From: an uncultured Oscillospiraceae bacterium
GTDB lineage: Bacteria; Bacillota; Clostridia; Oscillospirales; Oscillospiraceae
Assembly (NCBI GenBank): GCA_934623575.1
Contig: CAKTVL010000008.1
Location: 5,319-69,318, forward strand
Direction of reading: 5' to 3'
DNA length: 64,000 bases
Below the pieces are notes generated by a model that saw only the letters and a list, made by a program, of their open reading frames with translations, was not told the origin of the DNA and searched no databases. Shown in pieces: positions 1-55,305 of this stretch; the first letter of the stretch is position 1; each line of letters opens with the position of its first letter. Made by a program: the position numbers and the translations under genes.

Positions 1-1947
1 GTTCATGGCCACAATTTTCTGCTTAAAAACCGCAAAGTTCTGTTCGAGCAAAGTTGCAAGGTTCAGCATATCCATTTCGCTAATGGCCTTTTGAGCAATG
101 TGATGGTCACATGCATTAAAAGCACCTACATCGACAAAACGGCGATATATTCTTATAAGCTCAAAATCAACATATCCGATACCACTCTTTCTGCAAATGG
201 TATACCACTTTTGAAATTGTTCATCTGCATCATAGTCACTGCTACTCAATTTGTTTAATATATCGCGCACTCCTGTCCGGCCAAAAAATGAAACAAAATT
301 CTTAAATGGGCTCTGAAGAGTGCTGTCACAGACAAACTCAACAACATCTTTGTAGATGTCGGGAAATTCAACTGTTATATATTTTTTCAGCAAAGAGAAT
401 GTGGGTGATGCCAGTTCAATCATCCCCATAAGAGCAACAACGCGAGGCGTGGTTAAATATAGGAGATATAGTTTTTTATGGAGATCTGAAGATATGCCTA
501 ACAACTTTTCAGGCAAAAACTCGTTATCACTGATCAATGAAACAAACGAATCAACATTCCCCTCGAGCTGATCATACAGCCGATTCCACTCTTTAATCCT
601 GCGCTGGTTTCTATCCCAAGCACTCTTGCGGATAGCGAGTTCTTCTTTTGTTTCAGTTGTTCGCCCTCTACCACCTTCACTAAAGTGACCTCGAGCAGCG
701 ATCAATTTGTCCGGCATGCATAGATAGCGAACAAATTCATCTGCATCTTTGCCAAAATCCGCTTCAAAGAACGACCTGCTTCCAACCCCTTTGCCCTGTG
801 TAGGAATGAGCATGCATTGTACTGCTCTTAAAAACTTTGCATTCCATTTTGAGCCAACATAGCCACGCTCATGCGCGGACAAGGGAATATACCGCATAGG
901 GAAAGAAAATGCGCTTATTCTTGATCCCTCTGGCAACTCCTTGTTCAGTTTGTCCTTCAAATCGAGGGTAATTCTCATCCTGTTATACAAGTCTGCAGGC
1001 GTATCTGCAGCATACTGATGACCTTTACCGCCAAAGTCTTCGCTATTGTAAAGAACATAGTTAGAAAGTTCAGTTATTCCGTATTTTGCACACAGTCTTA
1101 ATGCCCGCTCATAGGTCTCGCGATCTTCAATATGATCAAATGCAATTCTGGCCGGCCGCAGCGCAATTTCACCTAAGCGTCGTGCCTTTGCCTCGGTTAA
1201 AAACATTGCATCAAGACCCTGGTTAAAGTCAACATATCGGCGAACAGTCTTTCCGGTCTTAGGGTTCACATAGGTAGCGCCCTTGCCAAACCCAGCCGCG
1301 ATAATATCGTCAATGATCTGATTGAATTTGGGAGACCGTAAAACATTATTATCCATCAGGAGTAGATCCTTTTTCGGACCATACTTTGCATCGATTTTTT
1401 TGATTTTTTCCTTTATATCTATGTACGGAATAAATGTGGGCTCCAACGTCTGGACAGCACAAAATCCACACTTGTTTCCGCAGCCCTTCGTTGCACTGAG
1501 GAAGTAAGCGTCTCTAAACGGATATTTGTAGTCAGTCTCATCCAGGATTGAATAATCCGGAACAATCTGATCGATGCATTCATCTCCAGGCAAGTTTAAT
1601 TTACCAGGCTCGTTTAACAGGCCACGAACCGGATTGATTCCTGTCTCTTCGAAGATCTGTTCAGGCAACATTGTCGCAGCAATACCGCCTACTGTGATTT
1701 GGTCAATCGAATCAACAAGTGTTTTTGCATATTCAATGGCCTCAATTGTAGCAGCCCATTCAAAAGTAAAGAGGGATGTCACATATACATGATCCCATTT
1801 GGTATTCGCAAACGCGGGAGGCAACTTACCTTTCGTAAACCGGACATAATCATGCATCTTTTCTCTATGAAATGATGCAATTTTCATGAGGCCAAGCGGC
1901 GGATATTTGTTCTTGTACTTGGGCTCTATTAGCAATATCTTTCTCAT
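1..1947 (-). CDS. Cobalamin-type radical SAM protein, truncated by the window edge
   Basis: The frame is open from an ATG at 1947 to the left edge, so at least 649 residues are present and the C-terminus is missing. The N-terminus (ILLIEPK, then PPLGLMKIA) is typical of the B12-binding-like Rossmann domain of cobalamin-type radical SAM enzymes. Residues 148-163 end in a Cys-x3-Cys-x2-Cys motif (C156, C160, C163) that would hold the 4Fe-4S cluster. Such enzymes cleave S-adenosylmethionine to start radical chemistry such as methylation or ring rearrangement; the substrate here cannot be read from sequence. It is the last visible gene of the minus-strand operon with two ParB-like proteins, a nuclease and a SNF2 helicase, starting 24 bases after the preceding stop. 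A nucleic-acid or nucleotide substrate is inferred from this context only. Confidence 0.8.
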   Translation of the reverse strand, partial: MRKILLIEPKYKNKYPPLGLMKIASFHREKMHDYVRFTKGKLPPAFANTKWDHVYVTSLFTFEWAATIEAIEYAKTLVDSIDQITVGGIAATMLPEQIFEETGINPVRGLLNEPGKLNLPGDECIDQIVPDYSILDETDYKYPFRDAYFLSATKGCGNKCGFCAVQTLEPTFIPYIDIKEKIKKIDAKYGPKKDLLLMDNNVLRSPKFNQIIDDIIAAGFGKGATYVNPKTGKTVRRYVDFNQGLDAMFLTEAKARRLGEIALRPARIAFDHIEDRETYERALRLCAKYGITELSNYVLYNSEDFGGKGHQYAADTPADLYNRMRITLDLKDKLNKELPEGSRISAFSFPMRYIPLSAHERGYVGSKWNAKFLRAVQCMLIPTQGKGVGSRSFFEADFGKDADEFVRYLCMPDKLIAARGHFSEGGRGRTTETKEELAIRKSAWDRNQRRIKEWNRLYDQLEGNVDSFVSLISDNEFLPEKLLGISSDLHKKLYLLYLTTPRVVALMGMIELASPTFSLLKKYITVEFPDIYKDVVEFVCDSTLQSPFKNFVSFFGRTGVRDILNKLSSSDYDADEQFQKWYTICRKSGIGYVDFELIRIYRRFVDVGAFNACDHHIAQKAISEMDMLNLATLLEQNFAVFKQKIVAMN

Positions 1948-1971
1948 ATCAGTTATACCCTTCGTGGGGAT

Positions 1972-2964
1972 TTATTTTCCCATGTCTTGAATGAGCTTAT
2001 TAACAGTCTTTTGGATTTTCTTCAACTCAAAACCAACAGATTTATTCGTGGTAGCTTCCAGCAACAATGCTTTCTGGAAATCGTCATCGTCAATCAAGTC
2101 ATGAAACTTCTTTATCCGCTGATATCCATTGCTTGCTTTTCCAGTCGCCTTAAATTTTTCATGCCCGTCATAAATGGACGTATTGCCCTGGATGATATCC
2201 TGCATAATTTTGGTGGCTGTTTTGTCTTTAGCCTTCGCGATCTCGCCCAGAACTGTTCGCACATCCATAGCTTGTTTGATCTGCTCTGTTTTGACCTGCG
2301 CCACGAAGGTATCATCCATTTGGGGATGAGTCTCACGGTATTTATTAATTCCTCTATTTTTTAAGTACTCCTCGTAGTAACTCCAGCGATCCGGGCGCAA
2401 ATCATCGTGCTCCAGCATGAAAGAGTATACTTTTAAGTACGCCAGCACTTTACTTTCTGTTAGGCCAACGTTTTTAGCAAGAATATCTGTGGCAATACCT
2501 GTTGACTCCTTCTGCCGATACAGATAGGCGGCTTGTTCAAAGACGCTCCAATCCTTGCGACCAACCAAATGATACTGACCTAAAAGGGTAAAAATATCCC
2601 CATCCGTAATCTCTTCTGGCAAAATACATGCTCGGACTTTTTGCCATTTAACAGGATCTTTGGCAGCCAATAACCTATAAGCCGCCAAACGGCTGTTCCC
2701 TTCAAGAACAATGTACTCATCATTGCGTTTTACAACCATTAACGGATCAATTAAGCCGCCATTCTGTTCAATGGACAGACGGAGCTGCTTGACATGATCC
2801 ATCGAAGTCATTTTTTCTTCGATGATCTCCTGGGTAGGGGTCGATCCATCAGCACGAAGAGCAGAATAAACACGAGGATTCTCTTCATAGAACAGCAACT
2901 CACACTGGTTTAACTGAACCTCACTAACCTCGTATTCTTTCTTCCCAATGGTTATCTTACTCAT
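1972..2964 (-). CDS. ParB-like domain protein (second of two in the operon)
   Basis: A 330-residue protein. The N-terminal third has the ParB/sulfiredoxin-type core: NPRVYSAL, then GGLIDPLMVV, then VLEGNSRLAAYR, matching the box that binds CTP or ATP in ParB relatives. The rest is helical and resembles the DNA-binding half of Spo0J/RepB-like proteins. The start is the ATG inside the 3' end of the SNF2 gene (8-base overlap), so the two are probably translationally coupled. The upstream ParB-like protein at 4857-5849 is also 330 residues long, suggesting duplication and specialisation. ParB-fold proteins outside chromosome partition occur in DNA-modification clusters as nucleotide-dependent enzymes or clamps. 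Whether this one is a nuclease, an ATPase or a loader is not visible. Confidence 0.8.
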   Translation of the reverse strand: MSKITIGKKEYEVSEVQLNQCELLFYEENPRVYSALRADGSTPTQEIIEEKMTSMDHVKQLRLSIEQNGGLIDPLMVVKRNDEYIVLEGNSRLAAYRLLAAKDPVKWQKVRACILPEEITDGDIFTLLGQYHLVGRKDWSVFEQAAYLYRQKESTGIATDILAKNVGLTESKVLAYLKVYSFMLEHDDLRPDRWSYYEEYLKNRGINKYRETHPQMDDTFVAQVKTEQIKQAMDVRTVLGEIAKAKDKTATKIMQDIIQGNTSIYDGHEKFKATGKASNGYQRIKKFHDLIDDDDFQKALLLEATTNKSVGFELKKIQKTVNKLIQDMGK

Positions 2965-4447
2965 AATCAAACTCCTCCTGTTCGGGGAACAGTATTGCAT
3001 TAATTAAATCACCGAAGCTATAATCAGCAATTTTCCTATATTTGCTAAGCGAGATATCTCCTTGAGCCAAAAATGCTGCATTTTGTTTTGCTTTCAGCAG
3101 AATATCAACCCATTCATCTATGCTGTCATTCACAATTATGTTGTGAACATAGCATGTCTTCTTCTGGGAAATTCGATGGATTCTATCTTGCGCTTGCAGA
3201 TAATCATCGAGGCTAAATCCTCTATCATAAAAAATTACATGGTTTGCCATTGTCAAAGTTAGCCCTTCTTTAGCTGAAGCAGGTGTAGCAAACAAAATGC
3301 GGTAATCATCTGTGTAAAAACGCTCCACAGAACGATTTCGATCTGCCATATTCATCCCGCCATGTATCTTTACACTGCCAAGCTCAGAATACTTTTTACA
3401 GAAATCGTTGACATTTTCGATAAAATTTGACCAAACAATACATTTTTCGCCATTTGTAAGGATCTCTTGAATAAGACGATCTAAGACAGCTTCTTTCGCA
3501 GATTCTCCAGAAAATGAATCGTCAACCAGTCGCGGGTTTGATGTGACCTGCACAAGCCGCAAAAGTCGCTTTACGATAGCAGACGAATCGTCCTCAACAA
3601 GTTCACCGTCTTTTACAACTTCAATCTTTAATTCCTCACGAACTCTATCGTACAAAGTTTTCTGTTCCGGGGCAAAGTCTACAGTTTCTCTAATATACAC
3701 TTTGTCCGGCAACTCAACAACTCCACTATTCTTGGTTTCGCGCACGGAGAAGTCCTTTATTCTGGCATGAATGCCAGAGACAACACCTTCAAAATTGCTC
3801 TGCGAGCCTTCGTCGCGAGATAGTTTATTTGACAGGTCTGTTTCCTTTCGGAATGAATTGAAATCTGTGCCAAGACTCTTTCCTTGATCTAAAAAGAAGA
3901 TTTGTGCCCAAATGTCATATGGGCGGTTTGCGACAGGAGTCCCCGTCATGATAACACGCTTTTTGAAGTGCGGTGATAATTCAAAGAATGCTTTTGTAAG
4001 TTTAGCGTTCGGATTTTTTAGTTTTGCGGATTCGTCAATGATAATAGCGACATTCCGAGTTTCTAAAAATAACTTAACCTGTTCAATCTCCGATACAAGA
4101 ACCTCAAAGTTTGTAACTACAACGCGTGCAGGGCCAGTAAAGACATAAAAGTTACCTTGTTTGTTCGTATCCAAAACAGCCGGCTTAATAGCCGTATGAT
4201 TCTTAAATTCTCTGATCCAATTCTGAACAAGTTGTTTTTTTGTAACAACCAGAACCGTATCTATAGAGGTTTCGGTTAGCCAATACAGCAGAAGATCGAT
4301 TGCGATTTTTGTTTTGCCAAGGCCTTGCTCATGAAAAATTGCAGCATACTCTAAATCCTTAATTGCTTCAAATGCCTCTTTTTGGTACTGGAAGGCATCG
4401 TATTTCGCAATGAAACTCGGTTCTTTTATTAGATGGATTCGCTTCAT
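2957..4447 (-). CDS. SNF2-family (SF2) DNA helicase/translocase
   Basis: A 496-residue protein with a complete SNF2-type motor. Walker A is EQGLGKT at about residues 40-46. The DEAH-equivalent box is DESAKLKNP at about 138, motif III is MTGTP at 167-171, and motif VI is QAQDRIHRISQ near the C-terminus. There is no obvious fused nuclease or methyltransferase, so it is a bare double-strand DNA translocase. It overlaps the upstream PD-(D/E)XK gene by 4 bases and the downstream ParB-like gene by 8, which implies co-translation and probably a complex. Bare SNF2 motors of this size are typical of defence and DNA-modification clusters such as DISARM or the deazaguanine (dpd) clusters. That comparison is context, not proof of function. 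Confidence 0.88.
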   Translation of the reverse strand: MKRIHLIKEPSFIAKYDAFQYQKEAFEAIKDLEYAAIFHEQGLGKTKIAIDLLLYWLTETSIDTVLVVTKKQLVQNWIREFKNHTAIKPAVLDTNKQGNFYVFTGPARVVVTNFEVLVSEIEQVKLFLETRNVAIIIDESAKLKNPNAKLTKAFFELSPHFKKRVIMTGTPVANRPYDIWAQIFFLDQGKSLGTDFNSFRKETDLSNKLSRDEGSQSNFEGVVSGIHARIKDFSVRETKNSGVVELPDKVYIRETVDFAPEQKTLYDRVREELKIEVVKDGELVEDDSSAIVKRLLRLVQVTSNPRLVDDSFSGESAKEAVLDRLIQEILTNGEKCIVWSNFIENVNDFCKKYSELGSVKIHGGMNMADRNRSVERFYTDDYRILFATPASAKEGLTLTMANHVIFYDRGFSLDDYLQAQDRIHRISQKKTCYVHNIIVNDSIDEWVDILLKAKQNAAFLAQGDISLSKYRKIADYSFGDLINAILFPEQEEFDYE

Positions 4448-4851
4448 ATTGCTCCTCCAATCCCGTCGATGATCCGTACCTCATATATTCCTGGATACTT
4501 CTGTTGAAGATTTCTAAGAATATTATGAATGGTGGCGTGCTCTGTCCACGGAACCGCAGCTAAAAACATAGCCTTTCCTCGGAAGAGAGAGCACTTTTTA
4601 AGGTACGATTCATACTGCAATTTACTATGTACACGGGCGACATCATCACTGGTTTTCGCCTCGCCGATAATCAAACTATGCTGATATTGATAATACACAT
4701 CAGGGCGATATCCCTCTTCCATAAGAGGAGAAAGTGCGTAGCCGTCTGCTGCATCTGACATGATAAAACACCTATTTGTTTCGCCAACTATACTGACGAC
4801 TTCGTCGATTATTAAATTGACCAGTTGCAAATGCTGCGCAGACTCGCCCAT
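4444..4851 (-). CDS. Small PD-(D/E)XK endonuclease-like protein
   Basis: A 135-residue protein with a recognisable PD-(D/E)XK active site. D51 lies in RPDVYY, E64 and K66 lie in GEAK, and Q79 lies in HSKLQYESY; D-x12-ExK with a downstream Gln is the arrangement seen in VRR-NUC and Holliday-junction-resolvase-like nucleases. No other domain fits in this length. It sits between the first ParB-like protein (5-base gap) and the SNF2 helicase (4-base overlap), so it is probably the nuclease of the complex, driven or targeted by the helicase. The family-level assignment comes from motif spacing alone. A catalytically dead structural role cannot be ruled out, although all four key residues are present. 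Confidence 0.72.
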   Translation of the reverse strand: MGESAQHLQLVNLIIDEVVSIVGETNRCFIMSDAADGYALSPLMEEGYRPDVYYQYQHSLIIGEAKTSDDVARVHSKLQYESYLKKCSLFRGKAMFLAAVPWTEHATIHNILRNLQQKYPGIYEVRIIDGIGGAI

Positions 4852-4856
4852 AGTGA

Positions 4857-5849
4857 TTACTCTCCCTTAACTTCACCCAGCACAAAGTTCAATTCTTCAA
4901 ATACGCGCTCTAAACTCTCTAATTTTTCTGAATACTCAGAATCATCGCGAAGATGTTCAACTTCTCTCAATTCAATTTTCGCCATTCGCTTGGTCAGTTC
5001 CTGTGCAAGCAGTTCATAGGGAACATCTTTCAATTTGTCCGTTGTAATCTCTTCAACAGCCAGTATTTTTTTAGCTTCTCTACTGTTTTCTTTCAAGAAA
5101 ACTTCCAAAGCATTTTTGCTTTTCAGGATCTCCGGTAGACGTCTAACATCTTGCAAAACAGAAAACCGGTCATCGATCATCCATTGAGAAAAATCAGTTT
5201 TGCTAAAGCCACGCATTGTAAGAGCATCGATAACATTCTTTCGCTGTAGCTCTACAAAACCATGGAAATTCCGATGGTCGAACTGCGTATCGTCGTCACA
5301 CAATGGCCGGTAATAGGTTTCCATGTCGTTGTATGCAGCAATCATATTTCGAATCTCAGATGCTTTTGAGGTGCCACCGCAAAAGGAAATTAACGTCGCC
5401 ATTGGCATATGCTCAACATTTGCGAGATGATGTAAATATAATGCCTTGGAATACGGATCCCACTCTCTTGGGCCAATAAGATGTGCCTGCAAACGAATCG
5501 CATGCATACGATCATCGTCTAAATCTTCGTAAACGATCGCACGAATCTTTGTCCAGTCACCAGGAACTCCATTTTTTATAAAGTCTTTATAAATTTGCAG
5601 TCTCGTGTTTCCCTCAACTACCACATAGCTCCCATCCACACGCCTGTTTACAACGATAGGATGAATGATTCCACCATTCTCCCTAATGGACTCTCGAAGA
5701 CTGGCGCACGCTTCGGATGTCGATCCCAGTAGTAGTGCCATTGTTTCACTTGTGATATTCTCGCCATAGTACGCAACGCCACGAGCAATGCGAGGGTTGC
5801 TCTTATCCAGTTCAATTGTTTCAACGGGAAGTTCAATATAATTATTCAT
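4857..5849 (-). CDS. ParB-like domain protein (first of two in the operon)
   Basis: A 330-residue protein with an N-terminal ParB-type core: NPRIARG, GGIIHPIVV and VVVEGNTRLQ. A helical C-terminal half follows, ending in an acidic coiled-coil-like tail. Two adjacent ATG codons at 5852 and 5849 both lie inside the 3' end of the upstream XRE regulator. The second is preferred because GAGGG is better spaced from it. The protein aligns in plan and length with the ParB-like protein at 1972-2964, with the GG(I/L)I(H/D)P and EGN(T/S)RL boxes conserved. Paired ParB-like paralogues flanking a nuclease and a SNF2 motor are not a standard partition locus, as there is no ParA ATPase in view. A role in DNA modification or sensing is inferred. 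Confidence 0.8.
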   Translation of the reverse strand: MNNYIELPVETIELDKSNPRIARGVAYYGENITSETMALLLGSTSEACASLRESIRENGGIIHPIVVNRRVDGSYVVVEGNTRLQIYKDFIKNGVPGDWTKIRAIVYEDLDDDRMHAIRLQAHLIGPREWDPYSKALYLHHLANVEHMPMATLISFCGGTSKASEIRNMIAAYNDMETYYRPLCDDDTQFDHRNFHGFVELQRKNVIDALTMRGFSKTDFSQWMIDDRFSVLQDVRRLPEILKSKNALEVFLKENSREAKKILAVEEITTDKLKDVPYELLAQELTKRMAKIELREVEHLRDDSEYSEKLESLERVFEELNFVLGEVKGE

Positions 5850-6081
5850 CATCGCCCTCATGTCCCTTCGTGTTGTTTTCGTCCGGCACGATCTCCATAA
5901 TATCCTCAACCCTACAATCCAGTGCCGCACAAATCTTCATGAGTATCTCTGTGGTAACATGTCCGTTCCGCCCCATTTTGGTGACGGATGCAGGGCTGAT
6001 ACCTGCCTTTTCACACAGGTCTTTTTTCTTCATGTCCTTATCGATAAGCAACTTCCAGAGTTTTTTATAACTCACAGACAT
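5842..6081 (-). CDS. XRE (Cro/CI-type) transcriptional regulator
   Basis: A 79-residue HTH protein. The N-terminal KLWKLLIDK leads into a Cro/CI helix-turn-helix around ISPASVTKMGRN, followed by TEILMKICAALDC, and it ends in an acidic tail. GGAGGAGA lies just upstream of the ATG. It is the first gene of the ParB-SNF2-radical SAM operon and overlaps the next gene. Close relatives head the type I restriction operon (24900-25115) and, in chimeric form, the operon at 33.7-44.8 kb (44483-44761). It is probably an autorepressor of the operon. A conditional-terminator-like leader also lies between its promoter and its start. Confidence 0.85.
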   Translation of the reverse strand: MSVSYKKLWKLLIDKDMKKKDLCEKAGISPASVTKMGRNGHVTTEILMKICAALDCRVEDIMEIVPDENNTKGHEGDDE

Positions 6082-6112
6082 AAACTATCTCCTCCGTACC
6101 AATATACAAAAA

Positions 6113-6163
6113 ATGCTCTGCCGCTTGGCAGAGCATCCGGTCTATTGCAGCCATACTGCCAAG
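6113..6163 (-). promoter_or_regulatory. Leader terminator with competing antiterminator pairing
   Basis: On the minus strand a perfect 10-bp stem with a 4-base loop (6113-6136) is followed by a run of T (A-run at 6107-6112 on the plus strand), an intrinsic terminator placed before the XRE start codon. Upstream in the transcript CTTGGCAG (6156-6163 as CTGCCAAG on the plus strand) can pair perfectly over 8 bases with part of the terminator stem (6124-6131). The two structures exclude each other. This is the layout of an attenuator or riboswitch-like switch, or a short RNA of about 75 bases ending at the terminator. Confidence 0.55.
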
Positions 6164-6195
6164 GCCTATTCCAACACATGACAGCGTTGTTTTTA

Positions 6196-6224
6196 ATGAT
6201 AACACATTCAGGCAGAGAAAGCAA
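6196..6224 (-). promoter_or_regulatory. Promoter of the ParB-SNF2-radical SAM operon
   Basis: On the minus strand TTGCTT (6219-6224) and TATCAT (6196-6201) are separated by 17 bases, a good sigma-A promoter. The predicted start near 6189 gives a leader of about 110 bases containing the terminator/antiterminator pair. Confidence 0.6.
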
Positions 6225-6359
6225 GAAAATGATAAATCCGCACGAATTTTGACTCTATTAGATTTCTTTTCGAGCCGCAGAAGAAAACAGTTGAACCTCC
6301 GGGCAGTCAGAGCTACAATGCCAATACCTCATCGCGAGAGCAAACTGATTGGAGGTCAG

Positions 6360-6839
6360 ATGATGAATTATGAAGCAAATCCGTGTCAGGACTACGAATC
6401 GATCACCATTGATGAGCTGAAGAATCAAGCTAACAGTCTACTGAATCTGGTAACGGAAGATCAGCGTCCACTGTGCGTATGTATGAATAACGGCAAGGAG
6501 TTTCTGCTGTTCCCTCAGGACCTGCTCGCACCGATCTGTGACTCTGACTTTCGCTTGATCCTGCTGTCGGCAATGCGGTATGCGATGGGCAGGAATACTT
6601 ATATGCCTGTGGTGGTTTCCGATTATATCAAGCGTCACATTCGGTTTCTGGACGATAAGTTTCTTGCGTTGGCTGCCGATGATATTCGGCGGCACCTCGA
6701 AGACTACGCAGAGCATGAGCCGAACCCGAATCTTTGGCAAGGCCTTTTTGATGCACTCGAAGCAGAGCAGAAATCGCGTGCCACTCGTCAGGCAAGGAAG
6801 ATTCGGTCTTGTCCGCCCTGCGGAAAGTCCTCGCTTTGA
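6360..6839 (+). CDS. Hypothetical protein near the element end
   Basis: A 159-residue soluble protein that I do not recognise. The start is set by GGAGGT seven bases before the tandem ATG-ATG at 6360-6365; an in-frame ATG 111 bases upstream lacks a ribosome site. The sequence is acidic in the middle (helical DDKFLALAADDIRRHLEDY) and ends in a basic, Cys-containing tail (RSCPPCGKSSL). It is transcribed away from the ParB-SNF2 operon and lies between that operon and the tRNA-Pro fragment. It may therefore be an accessory gene of the integrated element. No function is proposed. Confidence 0.5.
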   Translation: MMNYEANPCQDYESITIDELKNQANSLLNLVTEDQRPLCVCMNNGKEFLLFPQDLLAPICDSDFRLILLSAMRYAMGRNTYMPVVVSDYIKRHIRFLDDKFLALAADDIRRHLEDYAEHEPNPNLWQGLFDALEAEQKSRATRQARKIRSCPPCGKSSL

Positions 6840-6911
6840 GTGCCAATCGAAAAATATTCACGATAAAATTATGATGAAAGTCAACAGCGTTTTCCTCGCA
6901 GGGCGCAGATA

Positions 6912-6967
6912 CTTTCCCTTACTTCTGGTACGCTTTCCCTTAAAACGCAGTTCGGATTAAGGGAAAG
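6912..6967. repeat. CTTTCCCTTA repeats, candidate integrase arm sites
   Basis: CTTTCCCTTA occurs at 6912-6921 and again 21 bases (two helical turns) later at 6933-6942. An inverted copy TTAAGGGAAAG lies at 6957-6967 and forms an 11-bp inverted repeat with the second copy. They lie about 330 bases left of the tRNA-Pro fragment, where arm-type integrase or Xis sites would be expected. The assignment is positional only. Confidence 0.4.
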
Positions 6968-6970
6968 TCC

Positions 6971-7001
6971 CTATTCTTTGTCTATAGCGATGCAAATTCT
7001 G
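6971..7001. repeat. Dispersed TTATTCTTTG...GCGGCGCAG motif, copy A (diverged)
   Basis: This is the most diverged of five copies of a roughly 32-base motif ending near GCGGCGCAGTTTCTGAG. It lies about 290 bases left of the first tRNA-Pro fragment, much as copy D lies about 240 bases left of the second. Confidence 0.35.
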
Positions 7002-7107
7002 CGCCGCCTATCCCTACATAAAGAACTTGCTTAACCTCTCCAGCAGAGGTACAATGCGACAGACTGGAGAGGCAAATCATCCGTCCGCAGCGCTCCGACA
7101 AACTATG

Positions 7108-7157
7108 AAAAACCGCTTTCTGTCCCCTGTCACGAGGGTGTTCAGAAAGCGGTTTTT
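7108..7157. terminator. Perfect 15-bp inverted repeat near the element end
   Basis: AAAAACCGCTTTCTG (7108-7122) and its complement at 7143-7157 form a perfect 15-bp stem with a 20-base loop. A-tracts and T-tracts at the ends allow termination on both strands. The rest of 6840-7289 has a second inverted repeat (7035-7043 with 7064-7072) and no convincing gene. Confidence 0.5.
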
Positions 7158-7289
7158 GACCACATGTTTGACTACAGGCAGCCGTGGAGTGTGCGGAAAC
7201 AGTGGAGTCAAGAGTTGCGAAGAGCATCCATAATAAAGCAAAAGCGGCTATAAATCGTCGGAAAAAGTAGAAAAATTTTTATTCAAAAG

Positions 7290-7334
7290 TTTGGGAGCAG
7301 GATGCCGCAGGTTCGAATCCTGTCACTCGGACCA
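7290..7334 (+). other. 3' half of a tRNA-Pro(TGG) gene, probable attachment site
   Basis: The sequence runs from an anticodon loop TTTGGGA (anticodon TGG) through a 3' anticodon stem, variable loop, T-arm (GCAGG TTCGAAT CCTGT), acceptor strand CACTCGG, discriminator A and encoded CCA. The 5' half of the tRNA is absent. A 3' tRNA fragment is the classic trace of integrase-mediated insertion. With the tRNA reading rightward, the inserted element lies to the left and the intact tRNA-Pro should be outside the window. A normal tRNA terminator follows at once. Confidence 0.75.
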
Positions 7335-7341
7335 CCTTTCC

Positions 7342-7373
7342 CAGAAAAACCGCCTTTTTAGGCGGTTTTTCTG
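7342..7373 (+). terminator. Terminator after the tRNA-Pro fragment
   Basis: CAGAAAAACCGCC (7342-7354) pairs with GGCGGTTTTTCTG (7361-7373) across TTTTTA. It lies 8 bases beyond the encoded CCA, as expected for the original tRNA transcript. Confidence 0.7.
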
Positions 7374-7542
7374 CGTTATAAGTTCGATTTTTGAAGTGCG
7401 CTTGACCACATGCTAATTGTGGTCAGAGCGGTAAAATGGCGGCTTTATCCTTGGAACGGAAGAATGCAGAAAAACGCAAAATCCCTAACGCATCCCTAAC
7501 GGGAGTATTTTCAACATTTTTGTACGCAGGTGTGACAATATC

Positions 7543-7571
7543 TTGAATTTTTCGGCGTTATGCACTATAAT
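7543..7571 (+). promoter_or_regulatory. Promoter of the Lamassu-like pair
   Basis: TTGAAT (7543-7548) and TATAAT (7566-7571) are separated by 17 bases. The promoter overlaps the first ATG of the reading frame at 7560, so translation must begin downstream of it. A 9-bp hairpin followed by TTTTAT (7605-7632) lies in the leader and could attenuate transcription. Confidence 0.6.
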
Positions 7572-7619
7572 ATTTCTACGGTAGGCCTTTGCGCCGCCAA
7601 GGTAGCCGTACGGAATACC

Positions 7620-8696
7620 GTGCGGCTTTTATCATATACCAAAGGGGGAAAGCATCTTGGGGTAGTTGATGTCTATACCAAAATCCCATATGACCTTTCA
7701 GGCTCAATAAGTAAAAATAGATTTCGCCAAGAGCTCTGCTGGGGCATAAGCAAAATGTTTGACCTCTTTGATAAAGAGGATTTTTGCGTTGTTTTTGATT
7801 ATAAGTGTGATATTGAGATTCATTTCAATGATTCCATTGAATTCTATCAGATTAAAACACACAAAATTCAATCGCCTTACAAGTTTTCTAATCTTAAAAG
7901 GCACAAAGATGGTCCAAGTATAATCGCAAAGCTTTTTGTTCTAAAAGACACCTCCTCCCCTGATGTCCCGATCCGATGTGCGCTTGTGTCAAACGCCTTT
8001 CTCCAGATTGGAAAGGTCGCAATATCCGATAAGGAGTCCTTTTCATTTGAAGAACTGGACGAAAAAAGTCAATCGGCTGTAAAGGCTGCCCTTACCGAGG
8101 AACTTGTTCGAGAAAATGTAGATCTTTCGAACTTATATTACATTTACACACCAATGAATCTTTTTGCCCCGCAAAACGATATCATTGGAAAGATAACCGG
8201 AAGCTTTGAAAGAATCAAGGGCTGTGAACCGGTGAAGCCCAATGCACTATACCGTCTGATTGTTGATACTGTTACTGAAAAGGCGTGTTATGAACTTAGC
8301 TCTCAAGATTACTCTGAACTAATCAGGTGCAAGGGTATTACAAAAGCTGAATTGAATACTATGCTGGATCATCATATGGAGAAAACTGACAATTCAGTTT
8401 CTCTTGTCCAAGATTACATTGAACGGAAGCAAGTAACCATTGGCGAAAAACGAAAACTGAAGCAGTCTTTGGCCAAAATTGTTGAAGCTGAATGTAAATC
8501 ACTCGAACTGCAAACGAAGCAACAAACTTTGTTCGAGTATATGGATACCATTTCAACTGATGTATCCTTTGAAGAGATGGCTGAAACGCTTTTGTCTCGT
8601 TACTCTACCACATTCCCGATAGAGTACAGTCAAACGGACAGGTATATATTTATATTATTAGTCATTAAGAGGTGGGAGTGTGGTCTAAATGAGTAA
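7620..8696 (+). CDS. Cap4/DUF4297-type nuclease, LmuA-like effector
   Basis: A protein of about 358 residues. Its N-terminal part (PYDLSGSISKNRF, then CDIEIHFN, then SIEFYQIKT) matches Cap4/DUF4297 double-strand DNA nucleases, with the D-E-(Q)xK active site visible. The C-terminal half is helical and unassigned. The start is uncertain: an ATG at 7560 lies inside the promoter, so the GTG at 7620 is used here. It overlaps the next gene, an SMC-like ATPase, by 8 bases. A Cap4-nuclease subunit coupled to a zinc-hook SMC is the architecture of Lamassu (Ddm) systems, where the nuclease degrades DNA after the SMC senses foreign ends. LmuC is not seen, so this would be a two-gene variant. Confidence 0.7.
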   Translation: MRLLSYTKGGKHLGVVDVYTKIPYDLSGSISKNRFRQELCWGISKMFDLFDKEDFCVVFDYKCDIEIHFNDSIEFYQIKTHKIQSPYKFSNLKRHKDGPSIIAKLFVLKDTSSPDVPIRCALVSNAFLQIGKVAISDKESFSFEELDEKSQSAVKAALTEELVRENVDLSNLYYIYTPMNLFAPQNDIIGKITGSFERIKGCEPVKPNALYRLIVDTVTEKACYELSSQDYSELIRCKGITKAELNTMLDHHMEKTDNSVSLVQDYIERKQVTIGEKRKLKQSLAKIVEAECKSLELQTKQQTLFEYMDTISTDVSFEEMAETLLSRYSTTFPIEYSQTDRYIFILLVIKRWECGLNE

Positions 8697-10386
8697 GTTG
8701 ATTTTTAAGGATTTATATTTGTTTTCACCTTCCGAAAAATTAGCAAAGAAGATTTCATTTGCCCCTGGCCGCACAATGATTACTTCGGATGCACATGACG
8801 GAACTGATCGCGGCAAATCAGTTATTATGAAGGCCCTATATCATACAATGGGCGCTGATTGTTATTTCGAAGGGAAATGGGATGATTCAAGCAAAACGTA
8901 TATTCTTCGCTTCTGCGTAGATGATGACGAATATTATATATTCCGGCACAACAAGCTGTTTAAGGTATTTGATGGTGAAAAAAATCTTCTGTTTTCTGTA
9001 ATCTCACGACACGAATTATCAGAGCGTCTATCAAGCATTACTGGTTTCGCCGTTAAGTTACCGCCCAGAGAACGAAATTCGGACGATGGCTACATACAAG
9101 AATTAGAAATCGCTTCTGCAGTTTACAACTACCTTCTTTATTTTGTGGATCAAGACTATCAAAATGGCTCACAGTTTGCGTCCTTCCAGCATCTCGGTGA
9201 ATATCTCGATTACAAAGAAAATGTTTTGTACTACCACTTTGGTGCTTTTGACGATGATTATTATATGTTAGTACAGGAGCAGGACATCTTGTTAGCAGAG
9301 GGTAGACGGTTAGAGAACGAACACAAGATGACATGCATGATGCTCGATAAAATTTACGCAAACATTCATTCTGTTTCTTACTCTAAGGATATCAAACATT
9401 TAAGAGCCGATGTCAACCGCACAAGGGATGAGTATAACAAGCTGTCCAATGCTTTGAATCAGCTTCGTCAAAAGCTAATTCGCCTACGTAATGAGAAGGC
9501 AGATCTGGAATATCATCTGCATGCTCTAACACTGTTCGGCAAAGAAAATGATCTCCAAATTGCCTCGCTCAACAATCATGTCTGTCCATTTTGCAAGTCA
9601 GAAATAAATGATGCAATAGATTTAAGAATCAAAAAGTACAGCACCGGTGATGATATCATTCTACTTAGCAGCGATATGCAGTATAGTATTATGGAGATTG
9701 ACCGGAAAATTTCCGAATATGAGGCTGAGTATTCACAATGGCTTTCTAAATTGAGAAAATATGAAGAATCAATCAATATTGCATCGACAGAAATCAACGA
9801 CATCCTAAAGCACGAGGGCTTTATTGATATCAAGGAATCTGTTGCTGAAGACTTGGACACTATTCGCAACAGCATATCGGAAAATGAAAAGAAGCTTAGG
9901 GAGGTGAAAAAATCACTTCGCAAATATGGTGAAATCAAGAAAAAAATAAATGAGCGATACTACGCCTTGATGCTGTCTGATAAGAATCGTTTTGGCCTTG
10001 AAGGAATCAATGCAAAAAGCTTTGAAAATATAAAGCGAACTTTTTCTGCTGGAGGCAGCAACAATCCGCTTTCAACAATTATTTGGTATGTTAATCTAAT
10101 TCAGCTTAAGCATGAATTTAATCCTTCGGCAATAGATTTTCCTGTTGTTTTCGATAGTCCCAACAATGCGGAGACTGATGAAACGAAAAAACGCCAAATA
10201 TACAGTTATATTTGTGAGCGTATAACTGAAAACCAGCTTATTGTTTCAGGTCTTGGGTTTTCAGGAGACGAAATTTTGGATTCCTTTGATTCTATTATTA
10301 CCCTCACCAACAACAAGTACGAATTACTTTGTCAGAAAGACTATGATGCTAATGTTTCTTTGTTACGAGAATTGAACAATAAGTAA
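8689..10386 (+). CDS. SMC/Rad50-like ATPase, LmuB-like
   Basis: A 565-residue protein with an SMC-type plan. A variant Walker A (GTDRGKS, about residues 38-44) is followed by a long coiled coil broken by CPFC (C299, C302), a Rad50-style zinc hook. A second coiled coil and a C-terminal lobe follow, with SAGGSNNPLS as signature-like loop and VVFDSPNNAET as Walker B/D-loop-like segment. It starts within the 3' end of the nuclease gene. In Lamassu the SMC subunit clamps DNA and releases the nuclease. The same fold occurs in other ATPase-nuclease defence pairs, so the Lamassu label is a best match rather than certain. Confidence 0.72.
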   Translation: MSKLIFKDLYLFSPSEKLAKKISFAPGRTMITSDAHDGTDRGKSVIMKALYHTMGADCYFEGKWDDSSKTYILRFCVDDDEYYIFRHNKLFKVFDGEKNLLFSVISRHELSERLSSITGFAVKLPPRERNSDDGYIQELEIASAVYNYLLYFVDQDYQNGSQFASFQHLGEYLDYKENVLYYHFGAFDDDYYMLVQEQDILLAEGRRLENEHKMTCMMLDKIYANIHSVSYSKDIKHLRADVNRTRDEYNKLSNALNQLRQKLIRLRNEKADLEYHLHALTLFGKENDLQIASLNNHVCPFCKSEINDAIDLRIKKYSTGDDIILLSSDMQYSIMEIDRKISEYEAEYSQWLSKLRKYEESINIASTEINDILKHEGFIDIKESVAEDLDTIRNSISENEKKLREVKKSLRKYGEIKKKINERYYALMLSDKNRFGLEGINAKSFENIKRTFSAGGSNNPLSTIIWYVNLIQLKHEFNPSAIDFPVVFDSPNNAETDETKKRQIYSYICERITENQLIVSGLGFSGDEILDSFDSIITLTNNKYELLCQKDYDANVSLLRELNNK

Positions 10387-10392
10387 GCTACA

Positions 10393-10424
10393 TTGGGGCA
10401 TGCAGTTCAATCTGCATGCCCCAA
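10393..10424 (+). terminator. Terminator of the Lamassu-like pair
   Basis: TTGGGGCATGCAG (10393-10405) pairs perfectly with 10412-10424 around a 6-base loop, just after the ATPase stop. It also lies just beyond the end of the converging integrase gene and may serve both. Confidence 0.7.
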
Positions 10425-10430
10425 CGCATT

Positions 10431-11660
10431 TTATCCTACTTTTTCAAACGGAATCACCTTGCACCGGCTCTGCTCCGGCGGGTCGGGAGGCTCCGGAGTA
10501 GGCGTTGCCGTGGCCGATTCCATAAAGCCGCCGATTTTCTCAGCCGCACCTCTCTGCATATCGTTGGTGATGTGCGTGTAGGTGTCCAGCGTGAAGCCCG
10601 CGCTGAAGTGGCCCAACATACTGGACAGGGTTTTCACATCCACGCCGCTGGAGATTGCCATCGTTGCGAATGTGTGTCTGAGGTCATGGAAGCGCACATG
10701 CTCCTCGATGCCCGCGTTTTTCAGCAGTTTCCGGTTGATCCTTGACACGGCATCCGGACTCCAGTAGCCGCCCGTCCGGGGCGACGGGAACAGGATTGGA
10801 TTGTCCGGGTGCTGCTCATGCTCCTGCACCAGCAGGTCCACTGCCTGCTGAGACAGCGCCACCTTGCGGACGGAGTTTTTTGTTTTCGGCTCCGTCACAT
10901 CCAACTCGCCCTCCATGCGGGTGACCTGCTTATTCACCGTCAGGATGCGCTCTTTTACATTCAAGTCCTCCCACTGGAGTGCCAGCAATTCGCCCCGGCG
11001 CAGGCCGCTGGACAACTCCAGATAGAACATAGGCAGGACGCCGTATTTCTCCGCTTCCTGGAGGTATCTGCCGATCTTCTCCGGTGGGAGGATGGTCATC
11101 TCTTTCTTGTCCTTGGGCGGGATGCGGCAGTTCTCGCAGGGGTTGTACGGGATGAGCCGCTCTTTCACCGCCTGCTTCAGCGCCGCCTGCAGCACCGCAT
11201 GGACACGCCGCACGAAGGTGTTGGACAGGGGCTTGTCGTTCTGCTTCGACCCACGCTGCATCCTGCCGTTTTCTTTCAGGTCGTTATACATTCTCTGGAT
11301 GTGGATGGACGAGAGCTGCTTAAGCTTGATCGCGCCGATGGCCGGGATGATGTGGTGCTCGATGATCCCCTCATAGCCTTTAGCGGTGTTGTAGCGGATG
11401 TTGGGCTTGCTGTAAGTTTCAAACCACAGGCGGCACCACTCCGCTGCGGTGTAGTCGCCCATGTGATTGAGCGGCACGCCTCGATTCTCCCGAATGGCTT
11501 TCGCCAGCTTTTCTTTGCATTCCGCCTGGGTCTTGGCAGACACACTTTTCTGGATGGCCCGGCCGGTGACCGGGTCGATGCCCTGGGTATATCTGCCCTC
11601 CCAGCGGCCGCTGGGCTTTTTGCGGATACTGCCCTCTCCGTTGGCTCGTTTCTTTGCCAT
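10431..11660 (-). CDS. Tyrosine recombinase (Tn916-type integrase)
   Basis: A 409-residue integrase. The N-terminal GEGSIRKKPSGRWEGRY region is the AP2-like arm-binding domain, followed by a SAM-like core-binding domain and the catalytic domain. Catalytic residues are visible: R in SSGLRRGEL, H-x-x-R in FHDLRHT, the LGH box and the Tyr in LDTYTH. It is probably active. The C-terminal tail is Pro/Glu-rich. An Xis-type gene lies 55 bases upstream, and the relaxase module follows in the same direction. This is the standard int-xis-mob order of mobilisable elements in gut Clostridia. Confidence 0.92.
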   Translation of the reverse strand: MAKKRANGEGSIRKKPSGRWEGRYTQGIDPVTGRAIQKSVSAKTQAECKEKLAKAIRENRGVPLNHMGDYTAAEWCRLWFETYSKPNIRYNTAKGYEGIIEHHIIPAIGAIKLKQLSSIHIQRMYNDLKENGRMQRGSKQNDKPLSNTFVRRVHAVLQAALKQAVKERLIPYNPCENCRIPPKDKKEMTILPPEKIGRYLQEAEKYGVLPMFYLELSSGLRRGELLALQWEDLNVKERILTVNKQVTRMEGELDVTEPKTKNSVRKVALSQQAVDLLVQEHEQHPDNPILFPSPRTGGYWSPDAVSRINRKLLKNAGIEEHVRFHDLRHTFATMAISSGVDVKTLSSMLGHFSAGFTLDTYTHITNDMQRGAAEKIGGFMESATATPTPEPPDPPEQSRCKVIPFEKVG

Positions 11661-11715
11661 TTATGATCCCTCCTTTTTAACACAAACACATACCACAGAG
11701 TTTTTGGAATAGCTA

Positions 11716-11934
11716 CTAAAATATTTCAGATTTTTTCGCGGCCTGTTCGTCGATCCATTCCATGAATTTATCACGTGGGACGATGATGCGGCTGCCCAGA
11801 GTAATGGTGGGGAAATCCCTGCGGTGGGCTACCTCGTAGGCATGAGCCAAGCCGATGCCCAGCACATGGGACACATCCTCCACGGTCAGCATCAGCGGGA
11901 GTTCATCAAACGAATTGTATTTGGATTTTCTCAT
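11716..11934 (-). CDS. Excisionase-type DNA-binding protein
   Basis: A 72-residue protein with the MerR/Xis winged-HTH signature: LMLTVEDVSHVLGIG, AYEVAHRRDFPTITLGSRIIVPRDKFMEWI. This is typical of excisionases and recombination directionality factors of the Tn916 family. It lies directly upstream of the integrase on the same strand. Xis would bend DNA at the element ends to promote excision. A simple transcriptional role is the alternative. Confidence 0.85.
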   Translation of the reverse strand: MRKSKYNSFDELPLMLTVEDVSHVLGIGLAHAYEVAHRRDFPTITLGSRIIVPRDKFMEWIDEQAAKKSEIF

Positions 11935-11967
11935 TCAGTTCCTTTCTGCCTTCCGGGCGGAAGGGTT

Positions 11968-11997
11968 TTATTCTTTGTTTTGCGGCGCAGTTTCTGC
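11968..11997. repeat. Dispersed TTATTCTTTG...GCGGCGCAG motif, copy B
   Basis: TTATTCTTTGTTTTGCGGCGCAGTTTCTG-type copy between the Xis and relaxase genes. Related copies are at 25291, 29670 and 29994, with a diverged one at 6971. Confidence 0.45.
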
Positions 11998-12002
11998 GCC
12001 GC

Positions 12003-19394: not shown

Positions 19395-19993
19395 TACGCT
19401 TCCTCCTCTTCTGCTAAATGAGGCATCTCATATAAGTTGCCCAATAGCTGTTTTATAAATACAATAACCTTATCGGCATCTTCTTGGGTTGCCATTCCCA
19501 TTTCGTGCGTATACTTGTTTCCTATCTTTCTTATTTTATCGACCCATGCTTTGTTTTGTCTACCGATATAGCCATTCACTTCCAAAAAATCTATGTATTC
19601 GACGAAGCGTTTTCCCACATCAGCACCCTTGTCAACCGCAATATACATTAACAATGTTCGTGAAACCATTATAACCGAGTGATAACACTCATTTAGAAAG
19701 CACTTTCTGCATTCGTTATACAGCTTTTCTACATTGGGCGGTAGAAAGCGTACATCTTCATAGGGCAGCAACTGTGACTGCGGTATGATTTTTCCGTCAA
19801 GACCAATGATGACCGGCATGAAGCACTCCGGGCATTTGTGAATTTGATATTTAATGGCACCGGTAGCTGTATCGACAATTCTGGTGGTAGAACCCGCCTG
19901 TACCCGCACGCCGCAGTATGGACAGGTTATTGTTTTTGCAGTCATCTCTTTTTTGGGAATGGCCTTCCAAGTCCATTCTTTTATCTCTATCAT
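19394..19993 (-). CDS. DUF4145-type zinc-ribbon protein within the type I operon
   Basis: A 199-residue protein. The N-terminal zinc ribbon has TCPYCGVRV and KCPECFMPV, two CxxC pairs. The C-terminal DUF4145-type helical region includes YNECRKCFLNECYHSVIMVSR and DKIRKIGNKYTHE. Such proteins often sit between hsdS and hsdR and occur as fusions to HsdR N-termini. It starts 2 bases after hsdS and overlaps hsdR by one base, so co-translation is likely. A role in holding the R subunit or modulating restriction is inferred from this position only. Confidence 0.75.
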   Translation of the reverse strand: MIEIKEWTWKAIPKKEMTAKTITCPYCGVRVQAGSTTRIVDTATGAIKYQIHKCPECFMPVIIGLDGKIIPQSQLLPYEDVRFLPPNVEKLYNECRKCFLNECYHSVIMVSRTLLMYIAVDKGADVGKRFVEYIDFLEVNGYIGRQNKAWVDKIRKIGNKYTHEMGMATQEDADKVIVFIKQLLGNLYEMPHLAEEEEA

Positions 19994-19995
19994 AC

Positions 19996-23357: not shown

Positions 23358-23449
23358 ATTTCCTCGTTCCCTTCCTCGCTGTAATAAGGCACCAATGATC
23401 ATATCCTGAATGGTATCTTACTAAAGTTTCTACCCGTTATTCTGGACTA

Positions 23450-53642: not shown

Positions 53643-53671
53643 GGATGAATGTTCCTTTCCGTGCAAGGGTT

Positions 53672-54868: not shown

Positions 54869-55305
54869 GACTCCGCCGCCCCCTTCAGCAGGATGTCCAC
54901 GGCGTCCAGATAGCCCGCAAAGCCCCGGCCTGTCACAGTGGCGATACACGCCGGACGGACGTAGCTGATCTGCCGGAAGTCCTCCCGTGCGGCCACGTCG
55001 GAGATGTGTACCTCCACCGCAGGGATGGCCACAGCCTTCAGCGCATCCAGCAGCGCCACGCTGGTGTGGGTATAGGCCGCCGGGTTGAGGATAATGCCCT
55101 CCACCCCGTCGAAATACGCCTGCTGGATGGCGTCCACCAGCGCGCCCTCGTGGTTGGACTGGAAGAAGGACACCTCCGCGCCGCGCCTTTCTGCGTGGGC
55201 GCGGATCAGCTCCAGCAGCTGGGCATAGGTGCCGCTGCCGTAAATGGCCGGCTCCCGGATGCCCAGCATATTGAGATTGGGGCCGTTGATGACCAGCAGC
55301 TTCAT
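54865..55305 (-). CDS. aroQ: 3-dehydroquinate dehydratase, type II
   Basis: A 146-residue type II dehydroquinase: LVINGPNLNMLGIREP with the catalytic Tyr in IYGSGTY, QSNHEGALVDAIQQA, ILNPAAYTHTSVAL and EVHISDVAAREDFR. It dehydrates 3-dehydroquinate to 3-dehydroshikimate. ATG 55305 follows AGGAG at 8 bases; a GTG three codons upstream is less likely. It overlaps the aroEK stop. Confidence 0.95.
   Translation of the reverse strand: MKLLVINGPNLNMLGIREPAIYGSGTYAQLLELIRAHAERRGAEVSFFQSNHEGALVDAIQQAYFDGVEGIILNPAAYTHTSVALLDALKAVAIPAVEVHISDVAAREDFRQISYVRPACIATVTGRGFAGYLDAVDILLKGAAES

What the first reader, a model, noticed from the sequence alone, without database searches (positions are those of the whole stretch)
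1..6224. Operon of XRE, two ParB-like proteins, PD-(D/E)XK nuclease, SNF2 motor and cobalamin-type radical SAM enzyme
Six overlapping or closely spaced minus-strand genes behind one promoter combine a nuclease, a bare SNF2 translocase and two ParB-like proteins of equal length with a B12-type radical SAM enzyme. ParB-like and SNF2 proteins are known together in DNA-modification clusters, but no TGT, methyltransferase or Dnd/Dpd core enzyme is visible here. The set suggests a DNA-modification or anti-phage system in which radical chemistry makes the mark or toxin. The operon lies inside an element inserted at tRNA-Pro.
Basis: partly seen in the sequence, partly recalled or inferred. Interest (0 to 1): 0.86.

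Follow-up and report, generated by a model that had tools for sequence, protein, structure and literature searches.

The report
ParB, nuclease, SNF2, radical-enzyme gene set
A set of neighbouring genes found together in several unrelated bacteria, plasmids and virus-like contigs links two DNA-clamp-like proteins, a DNA motor and a DNA-cutting enzyme with a free-radical enzyme that may chemically mark DNA, which would be a new chemistry for telling own DNA from invading DNA, although neither the mark nor a defence role has been shown.

Summary
Window 1-6081 (minus strand) carries XRE, ParB1, a PD-(D/E)XK nuclease, a bare SNF2 motor, ParB2 and a radical SAM enzyme, overlapping or 5-24 bp apart; the window edge cuts the last gene. 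The set is a real unit: ParB1-nuclease-SNF2-ParB2 is present in 17 further loci, and all 11 found with ParB1 as query have a radical SAM gene of one signature in the same locus. A GHKL/HSP90-like ATPase adjoins it in 14 of 17, and in six plasmid loci a DGQHR (DndB/DpdB-type) gene precedes it. The radical SAM-GHKL pair is modular: relatives sit in a DISARM-like DrmA-DrmB operon in which I saw no methyltransferase and in a NurA-like/HerA-like operon; a tree suggests repeated partner swaps. Some phage relatives pair with a ParB-like gene. Best reading: a mobile-element-borne, restriction-modification-like defence system whose mark is written by the radical SAM enzyme, guided by ParB/DGQHR proteins. 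Defence and mark are inferred. It does not meet the definitions of Dnd, Dpd, DISARM or Zorya; ten searches of an open-access library found no description.

The parts
5842..6081 (-). XRE-family (HTH_26, VanU-like below cut-off) regulator, 79 aa, first gene of the operon; similar genes precede the cassette in L003 and L014 and one DISARM-like operon (L096, 62% identity over 74 aa)
6111..6138 (-). terminator-like hairpin plus T-run in the leader upstream of the XRE start; possible attenuator
   Evidence: 1 found; shuffles mean 0.4, sd 0.8, so it may be chance; no Rfam match at its family's gathering score in 5800-7600
4857..5852 (-). ParB1, ParB-like protein, 331 aa (EGNTR and QAHLIG motifs)
4444..4851 (-). 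small PD-(D/E)XK-type nuclease, 135 aa; D51, E64xK66 and Q79 invariant in 34 sequences
2957..4447 (-). SNF2-family motor, 496 aa, no further domain in Pfam; Walker A GLGKT and DESA box
1972..2964 (-). ParB2, second ParB-like protein, 330 aa (longer ORF to 3000), 26% identical to ParB1 over 247 columns
1..1947 (-). radical SAM enzyme, cut by the window edge; CGNKCGFC cluster motif and DNN, QGLD, AFDH motifs; B12-binding-like plus radical SAM fold in residues 1-420 and an all-helical C-terminal region (model of a 91%-identical relative)
7288..7334 (+). 3' fragment of a tRNA gene (tRNA-Pro by own reading), candidate attachment-site scar to the right of the operon
   Evidence: the tRNA's identity is my reading, not a tool result

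Best explanation
A mobile-element-borne, restriction-modification-like defence system made of two exchangeable modules. Module 1 (attack): ParB1 and ParB2, presumed sliding clamps, load on DNA and deliver the SNF2 motor, which drives along DNA and lets the small PD-(D/E)XK nuclease cut it. Module 2 (mark): the radical SAM enzyme, guided to DNA by a ParB or DGQHR partner and usually helped by a GHKL/HSP90-like ATPase, puts a chemical mark on host DNA (probably on a base) that module 1 reads as self. Shown here: gene content, conserved motifs, conserved linkage across phyla, and the same radical SAM family in other motor-nuclease operons. Inferred: DNA as the substrate of the radical SAM enzyme, use of the mark for self/non-self, clamp action of the ParBs, anti-phage function.
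For: Linkage: searches with ParB1 as query gave 11 distinct new cassettes (2 of 390 non-seed genomes of the class of G002; 3 viral-collection contigs; 6 distinct loci among 7 plasmid records), and all 11 have a radical SAM gene in the same stretch. The gene directly upstream of the radical SAM gene is ParB2 in 8 and DGQHR in 6 of 18 loci (window plus 17). The plasmid DGQHR protein matches TIGR03187 (2.1e-41) and, below cut-off, DpdB (6.1e-15); that DGQHR proteins belong to the Dnd and Dpd DNA-modification systems is from the family names and otherwise recalled. The same radical SAM family with GHKL sits in a DrmA/DrmB operon that begins with a further GHKL gene in 10 of 10 extended loci and in which I saw no methyltransferase, so it could fill the methyltransferase's role in DISARM. 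Conserved motifs in 17 loci: CxxxCxxC 17 of 17, EAKT of the nuclease 17 of 17, Walker A GLGKT 15 of 17. Phage relatives: a ParB-like ORF adjoins the radical SAM ORF in 8 of the 17 phage loci most like our family. Structural relatives include methylases and MiaB, which modifies RNA. Other defence genes lie in the window.
Against: No nucleoside data; the substrate is unknown and the best structural relatives act on a sugar, a peptide or small molecules. The C-terminal half was not identified. Three cassettes lack GHKL (L046, L048, L049; no tblastn hit). The radical SAM gene is on the opposite strand to the cassette in L047, L102, L186 and L188, so co-transcription is not universal. L045 has an SNF2 frame without its Walker A, and L188 is divergent in ParB and SNF2. 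Four cassettes are in viral-collection contigs, where they could serve the phage. The absence of a methyltransferase rests on HMM scans of one operon (L027) and a simple motif scan upstream. The phage ParB profile is partly circular: 3 of its 4 seed ORFs were picked for adjacency (without the seeds 5 of 10 hits adjoin).
Confidence: 0.45

Rival explanations
1. Same defence system, but the radical SAM enzyme is part of the attack: it alters or damages invading DNA after ParB loading and the nuclease clears it. No self mark exists; the ParBs recognise phage replication or packaging structures.
For: A radical SAM gene accompanies the nuclease in 11 of 11 ParB1-found cassettes; phage contigs carry short relatives, 12 of 79 loci with one terminase family nearby, a plausible counter-player.
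Against: DGQHR partners and the DISARM-like context point to modification systems; DGQHR-radical SAM-GHKL also occurs without this nuclease cassette in the annotated stretches of L189-L191.
Confidence: 0.15
2. Element or phage housekeeping rather than defence: a partition, replication or packaging aid of islands, plasmids and prophages, with ParBs and SNF2 handling element DNA and the radical SAM enzyme modifying that DNA or a partner.
For: Cassettes lie on plasmids, in viral-collection contigs beside tail- or lysis-like ORFs (L045-L047, L102; own reading) and near an integrase here. A ParA-family gene lies near the cassette in L186 and an ScpB gene in L184.
Against: No ParA gene inside any of the cassettes read; a PD-(D/E)XK nuclease and a writer shared with a DISARM-like set are more typical of defence; the cassette is rare and patchy (with seeds 3 of 391 and 1 of 398 genomes by ParB1, 1 of 296 by ParB2).
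Confidence: 0.18
3. The radical SAM enzyme does not act on DNA: it matures a partner protein (as MgmA methylates a glutamine) or makes an antiviral small molecule (viperin-like), while the ParB-SNF2-nuclease set works as a plain nuclease system.
Against: DGQHR and ParB-like genes overlap the radical SAM start in annotated plasmid loci (8 bp) and in phages such as L103, which suggests a DNA-linked role; viperin matches cover only about residues 146-388.
Confidence: 0.14

Closest known systems
Dpd (7-deazaguanine DNA modification-restriction)
   Same: A DGQHR protein (DpdB type, below cut-off), an SNF2-like motor (DpdE is the second-best PADLOC match of the window's SNF2) and a nuclease in one cluster
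   Different: No TGT (DpdA) or 7-deazaguanine gene among the operon genes or the annotated plasmid neighbours; radical SAM and GHKL instead
Dnd/Ssp phosphorothioation
   Same: DGQHR (DndB) family protein next to the radical SAM gene in plasmid loci, and near it in L003
   Different: No DndA, DndC, DndD or DndE among operon genes or annotated plasmid neighbours; PAPS-reductase genes only near 8 of 79 phage relatives
DISARM and DISARM-like YprA-helicase systems
   Same: The radical SAM-GHKL pair is shared with a DrmA-DrmB operon (GHKL, UvrD, weakly FapA-like, DrmA, DrmB, NERD/UvrD, radical SAM, GHKL)
   Different: The window cassette has no DrmA, DrmB or DrmC. A legend in PMC12458937 says the DISARM-like clade holds many uncharacterised classes, so the DrmAB variant may be listed in supplements that I could not see
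Zorya type I (ZorD helicase)
   Same: ZorD is the best PADLOC match of the SNF2 motor (1.4e-46)
   Different: No ZorA, ZorB or ZorC among the operon genes; the nuclease is a separate gene
HerA-NurA anti-invader systems and MADS (mad8)
   Same: A third operon type couples a NurA-like and a HerA-like gene to GHKL and this radical SAM family
   Different: Different motor and nuclease from the window cassette; the mad8 match (5.7e-7) and the HerA match (2.1e-4) of L070 are weak
B12-type-fold radical SAM enzymes (AprD4, MgmA, TsrM) and MiaB
   Same: Fold of residues 1-420 and CxxxCxxC cluster motif
   Different: 12-19% identity in the structure alignments, an extra helical C-terminal region, unknown substrate, cobalamin binding untested

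Membership tests
Dpd | DpdA (DNA-guanine transglycosylase) with 7-deazaguanine genes in the cluster | tested here: not met
   none among the six operon genes or the annotated genes of five plasmid loci (the gene tables are incomplete and the sixth record has none); the window's left flank is not held
Dpd | DpdB-type DGQHR protein | tested here: inconclusive
   plasmid DGQHR hits NF041060 at 6.1e-15, below its cut-off; the window's left flank is not held
Dnd phosphorothioation | DndC-type PAPS-reductase-like enzyme with DndD and DndE | tested here: not met
   none among operon genes or annotated plasmid neighbours; same limits as above
DISARM | DrmA, DrmB and DrmC with a DNA methyltransferase | tested here: not met
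   window operon has none; the related operon L027 has DrmA (2.1e-162) and DrmB (4e-53) but no DrmC or methyltransferase among the seven L027 genes scanned; upstream motif scan of 10 loci
Zorya | ZorA/ZorB pair with ZorC/ZorD | tested here: not met
   only the SNF2 domain matches ZorD; no other Zorya model hit in the operon
SNF2 family | SF2 core with Walker motifs and Helicase_C | tested here: met
   SNF2-rel_dom 1.2e-30, Helicase_C 1.8e-19; GLGKT and DESA
PD-(D/E)XK nuclease superfamily | D...(D/E)xK motif on the alpha-beta core | tested here: met
Radical SAM superfamily | CxxxCxxC cluster motif and radical SAM barrel | tested here: met
   Pfam score is below its cut-off
Cobalamin-dependent radical SAM enzymes | cobalamin bound by the N-terminal domain | not testable with these tools
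   fold present; that AprD4 has the fold without using cobalamin is recalled
ParB CTPase clamps | CTP binding and clamp closure | not testable with these tools
   ParB-like N-terminal region by PHROG, PADLOC and NCBIfam/Pfam, mostly below cut-offs; EGN(T/S)R in place of the classical GERR motif (the latter recalled)

The most novel reading that the evidence does not exclude
A ParB/DGQHR-guided radical SAM enzyme writes a previously unknown base modification on host DNA, and this writer is a portable cartridge that has been plugged into at least three motor-nuclease machines (ParB-SNF2-PD-(D/E)XK, DrmA-DrmB, NurA-HerA) and is also carried in short form by phages, perhaps as a counter-measure.
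Probability: 0.33. Interest if true: 0.92.

Novelty: new variant of a known kind. Interest (0 to 1): 0.74.

Why it matters
If true, it adds radical SAM chemistry to the ways bacteria mark their own DNA and could explain a DISARM-like class in which no methyltransferase was seen. It turns scattered 'hypothetical', 'ParB N-terminal', 'DGQHR' and 'radical SAM' annotations on plasmids, islands and virus-like contigs into one testable system, and it names a compact four-gene cassette and a two- or three-gene writer that can be cloned and assayed apart.

Tried and rejected
Considered and dropped: (1) A private six-gene unit: XRE is seen in few relatives and the radical SAM gene is shared with other systems. 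(2) GHKL only with long radical SAM proteins: the plasmid, L101 and L102 enzymes of 471-547 aa also have GHKL. (3) Riboswitch in the leader: three Rfam matches in 5800-7600, all below their gathering scores. (4) Second attachment site: no exact repeat of 13 or more bases of the tRNA fragment elsewhere in the window. (5) Close relative of the host: window 53000-57500 matched 99 of 148 genomes of the family of G006, the long matches at 75% identity or less. (6) Near DNA matches: plasmids none for 1-12000; phages 3 unannotated records covering at most 8% of 6000-12000. (7) ParB1 in named phage records: none. (8) ParB2 profile in viral contigs: none confirmed, although ParB2 genes are present in contigs found with ParB1, so that scan is insensitive. 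(9) PDB sequence searches: no relative for ParB1, one unrelated match at E 0.56 for radical SAM of L003; GHKL of L003 matches HSP90-type chains weakly, best 0.0025. (10) Foldseek gave the nuclease no match at E 0.001 or better and ranked clamp-loader chains first; I judge these generic alpha/beta similarity. (11) The viral fold library gave four matches at E 0.001 or better, to methylthiotransferase-like, B12-binding-like and radical SAM proteins. A printed line ('77 of 77 loci with ParB-like') is a script error; its list shows 13 of 77. My working note that GHKL goes with long radical SAM proteins was later found wrong.

Papers: PMC12458937 (outline, abstract and passages), PMC5379612 (passages), PMC10853773 (outline, abstract and passages); none describes this set in what I saw. 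All others: search listings only. The statement that no description was found rests on the ten searches in one open-access library; supplements were not available.
Full report

The unit is real. A radical SAM search of one genome per species gave 32 loci. Five have ParB1-nuclease-SNF2-ParB2 beside the gene (L001, L003, L011, L014, L029). Twenty-two have at least the NERD/UvrD gene of a DISARM-like set (L009 and L015 only that gene, next to a contig end). One (L030) has the HerA-like type. Four have neither (L004, L012; L028 and L032 are cut at the gene). That search is biased toward the radical SAM gene, so ParB1 was used as query. Genomes: 3 of 391 in the class of G002, seed included; 1 of 398 in the phylum of G005, the seed itself. 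Viral contigs: 3. Plasmids: 7 records, two of them one strain; 6 were opened. ParB2 as query: 1 of 296, the seed. All 11 new cassettes (L045-L049, L183-L188) have the four genes and a radical SAM gene in the same stretch. L188 is divergent, with three ParB-like genes, and my motif patterns miss its ParB and SNF2 boxes; the L045 SNF2 frame lacks its first 37 residues. L102, found by the radical SAM query, is one more cassette. Independent hint: of 36 contig lengths of 10 kb or more typed from the nuclease listing, 9 equal one of 75 typed from the radical SAM listing.

Partners. A GHKL/HSP90-like ATPase gene (HATPase_c_3 6.7e-11 in L003) adjoins the radical SAM gene in 14 of 17 cassettes; L046, L048 and L049 have none in the stretches held and the window is cut. 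L028, 90% identical over its radical SAM fragment, has GHKL next, so I expect it left of base 1. In six plasmid loci a DGQHR gene (TIGR03187 2.1e-41 for L184) precedes the radical SAM gene, overlapping its start by 8 bp in the five annotated ones and at the same place in L187. L003 has a DGQHR_dnd_1-like gene (8.7e-57, below that model's cut-off) two genes after GHKL. Three other plasmid stretches carry DGQHR-radical SAM-GHKL without the ParB cassette (L189-L191); the annotated radical SAM hits on plasmids have DGQHR next to them in 11 of 11 records, the twelfth having no annotation.

Other machines use the same family. In L027, DrmA (2.1e-162), DrmB (4e-53), a NERD/UvrD helicase, a UvrD helicase and a weakly FapA-like protein (0.0022, below cut-off) precede radical SAM-GHKL. 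Extending 10 of the 22 loci upstream showed a further GHKL gene at the head in 10 of 10 (37-43% identity). The methyltransferase motif scan of those stretches gave one SPPF in a minus-strand ORF of L089 outside the operon; it is a motif scan, not an HMM search. In a radical SAM search of the class of G002, 11 of 391 genomes matched, G002 and G140 included. Of the 9 other neighbourhoods opened, 7 have NurA-like and HerA-like genes with GHKL (L062-L065, L068-L070), one GHKL alone (L066), one a ParB-like gene (L067). The HerA-like and NurA-like genes of the other six match those of L070 at 44-63% and 30-49% identity; L070's own HerA-type hits are weak (mad8 5.7e-7, HerA 2.1e-4). Its NurA-like protein is 27% identical (5e-21) to the gene annotated as the Rad50/Mre11-associated exonuclease beside HerA in Marinitoga camini virus 1, which also carries a radical SAM relative.

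Swaps. On a tree of 43 radical SAM proteins the label 'ParB cassette' (9 rows) needs 8 changes, 7 forced by starred branches, no fewer than in 228 of 500 shuffles; between ParB and DrmAB rows alone 5 changes are needed. It is a quick tree with several long branches (L047, L048, L029 among the ParB rows), so exact counts are soft.

Phage relatives. Of 419 viral-contig matches the best 80 were kept; four of these (L099-L102) carry full operons, and the other 76 plus L180 were examined. ParB-like ORFs occur in 13 of these 77 loci. By ORF order 8 of 14 ParB-like ORFs adjoin the radical SAM ORF, against 140 adjacent among 1352 other ORFs (P 2e-5). Three of the four seed ORFs were picked for adjacency; without the four seeds 5 of 10 adjoin. 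All 8 fall in the 17 loci most like our family. Other neighbours among 79 loci (L101 and L102 included): PAPS reductase 8, N6/N4 methylase 6, cytosine methylase 6, one terminase family 12 (one member of each was named by Pfam); no background rate was computed.

Setting. The window also holds a Lamassu pair (LmuA 4e-116, LmuB 6.8e-189), an integrase, a MobL relaxase, a type I restriction set at 16422-23402 (my reading of the ORFs), an AIPR gene and a PLD-helicase. L045-L047 and L102 lie in viral-collection contigs beside tail- or lysis-like ORFs (my reading).

How it most likely works. Motor, nuclease and ParBs form the attack arm; ParB/DGQHR plus radical SAM plus GHKL form a writer; in the DISARM-like relative the writer could take the methyltransferase's role. 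I give 0.45 to a self-mark, 0.15 to radical attack on invader DNA, 0.18 to element or phage housekeeping and 0.14 to a non-DNA substrate. ParB-family proteins acting as nucleases or nucleotide-degrading effectors, raised in passages of PMC10853773, is compatible with each.

Noticed in passing
window 7560-10386 (+): Lamassu-type pair LmuA (Cap4 nuclease domain) and LmuB on the other side of the tRNA fragment from the operon.
   Followed up: partly
window 12003-44440: MobL relaxase with Sel1 repeats, type I restriction HsdR/S/M-like genes (own reading), AIPR gene, PLD-ResIII-DUF3427 helicase and an AAA_11/12-DUF2726 helicase: an island rich in defence-type genes.
   Followed up: partly
L005, L010, L013, L017-L020, L022, L024, L027 with L089-L098: DISARM-like operon GHKL-UvrD-FapA-like-DrmA-DrmB-NERD/UvrD-radical SAM-GHKL in which no methyltransferase was seen by HMM in L027 or by motif scan upstream; itself a candidate undescribed system.
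   Followed up: partly
L030, L062-L065, L068-L070, L101; Marinitoga camini virus 1 (L192): NurA-like and HerA-like genes with GHKL and the radical SAM gene; the named virus has radical SAM, HerA and NurA-like genes.
   Followed up: partly
L067 8295-11521: Neighbouring genes for a PD-Lambda-5_A-like ParB/DUF5677 protein and a radical SAM enzyme, without GHKL.
   Followed up: no
L183-L185, L188-L191: A PIN-like domain gene, in several cases with a further ATP-binding gene, recurs beside the DGQHR-radical SAM-GHKL trio on alphaproteobacterial plasmids; possibly another attack module.
   Followed up: no
L045 11400-11527: The SNF2 frame of this copy starts late and lacks the Walker A region.
   Followed up: no
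L046 6219-7790: Reverse-transcriptase-like gene upstream of the radical SAM-ParB cassette in a viral-collection contig (own reading).
   Followed up: no
L015: Contig labelled Planctomycetales carries a radical SAM gene that groups with Clostridia DISARM-like copies; possible misbinning.
   Followed up: no
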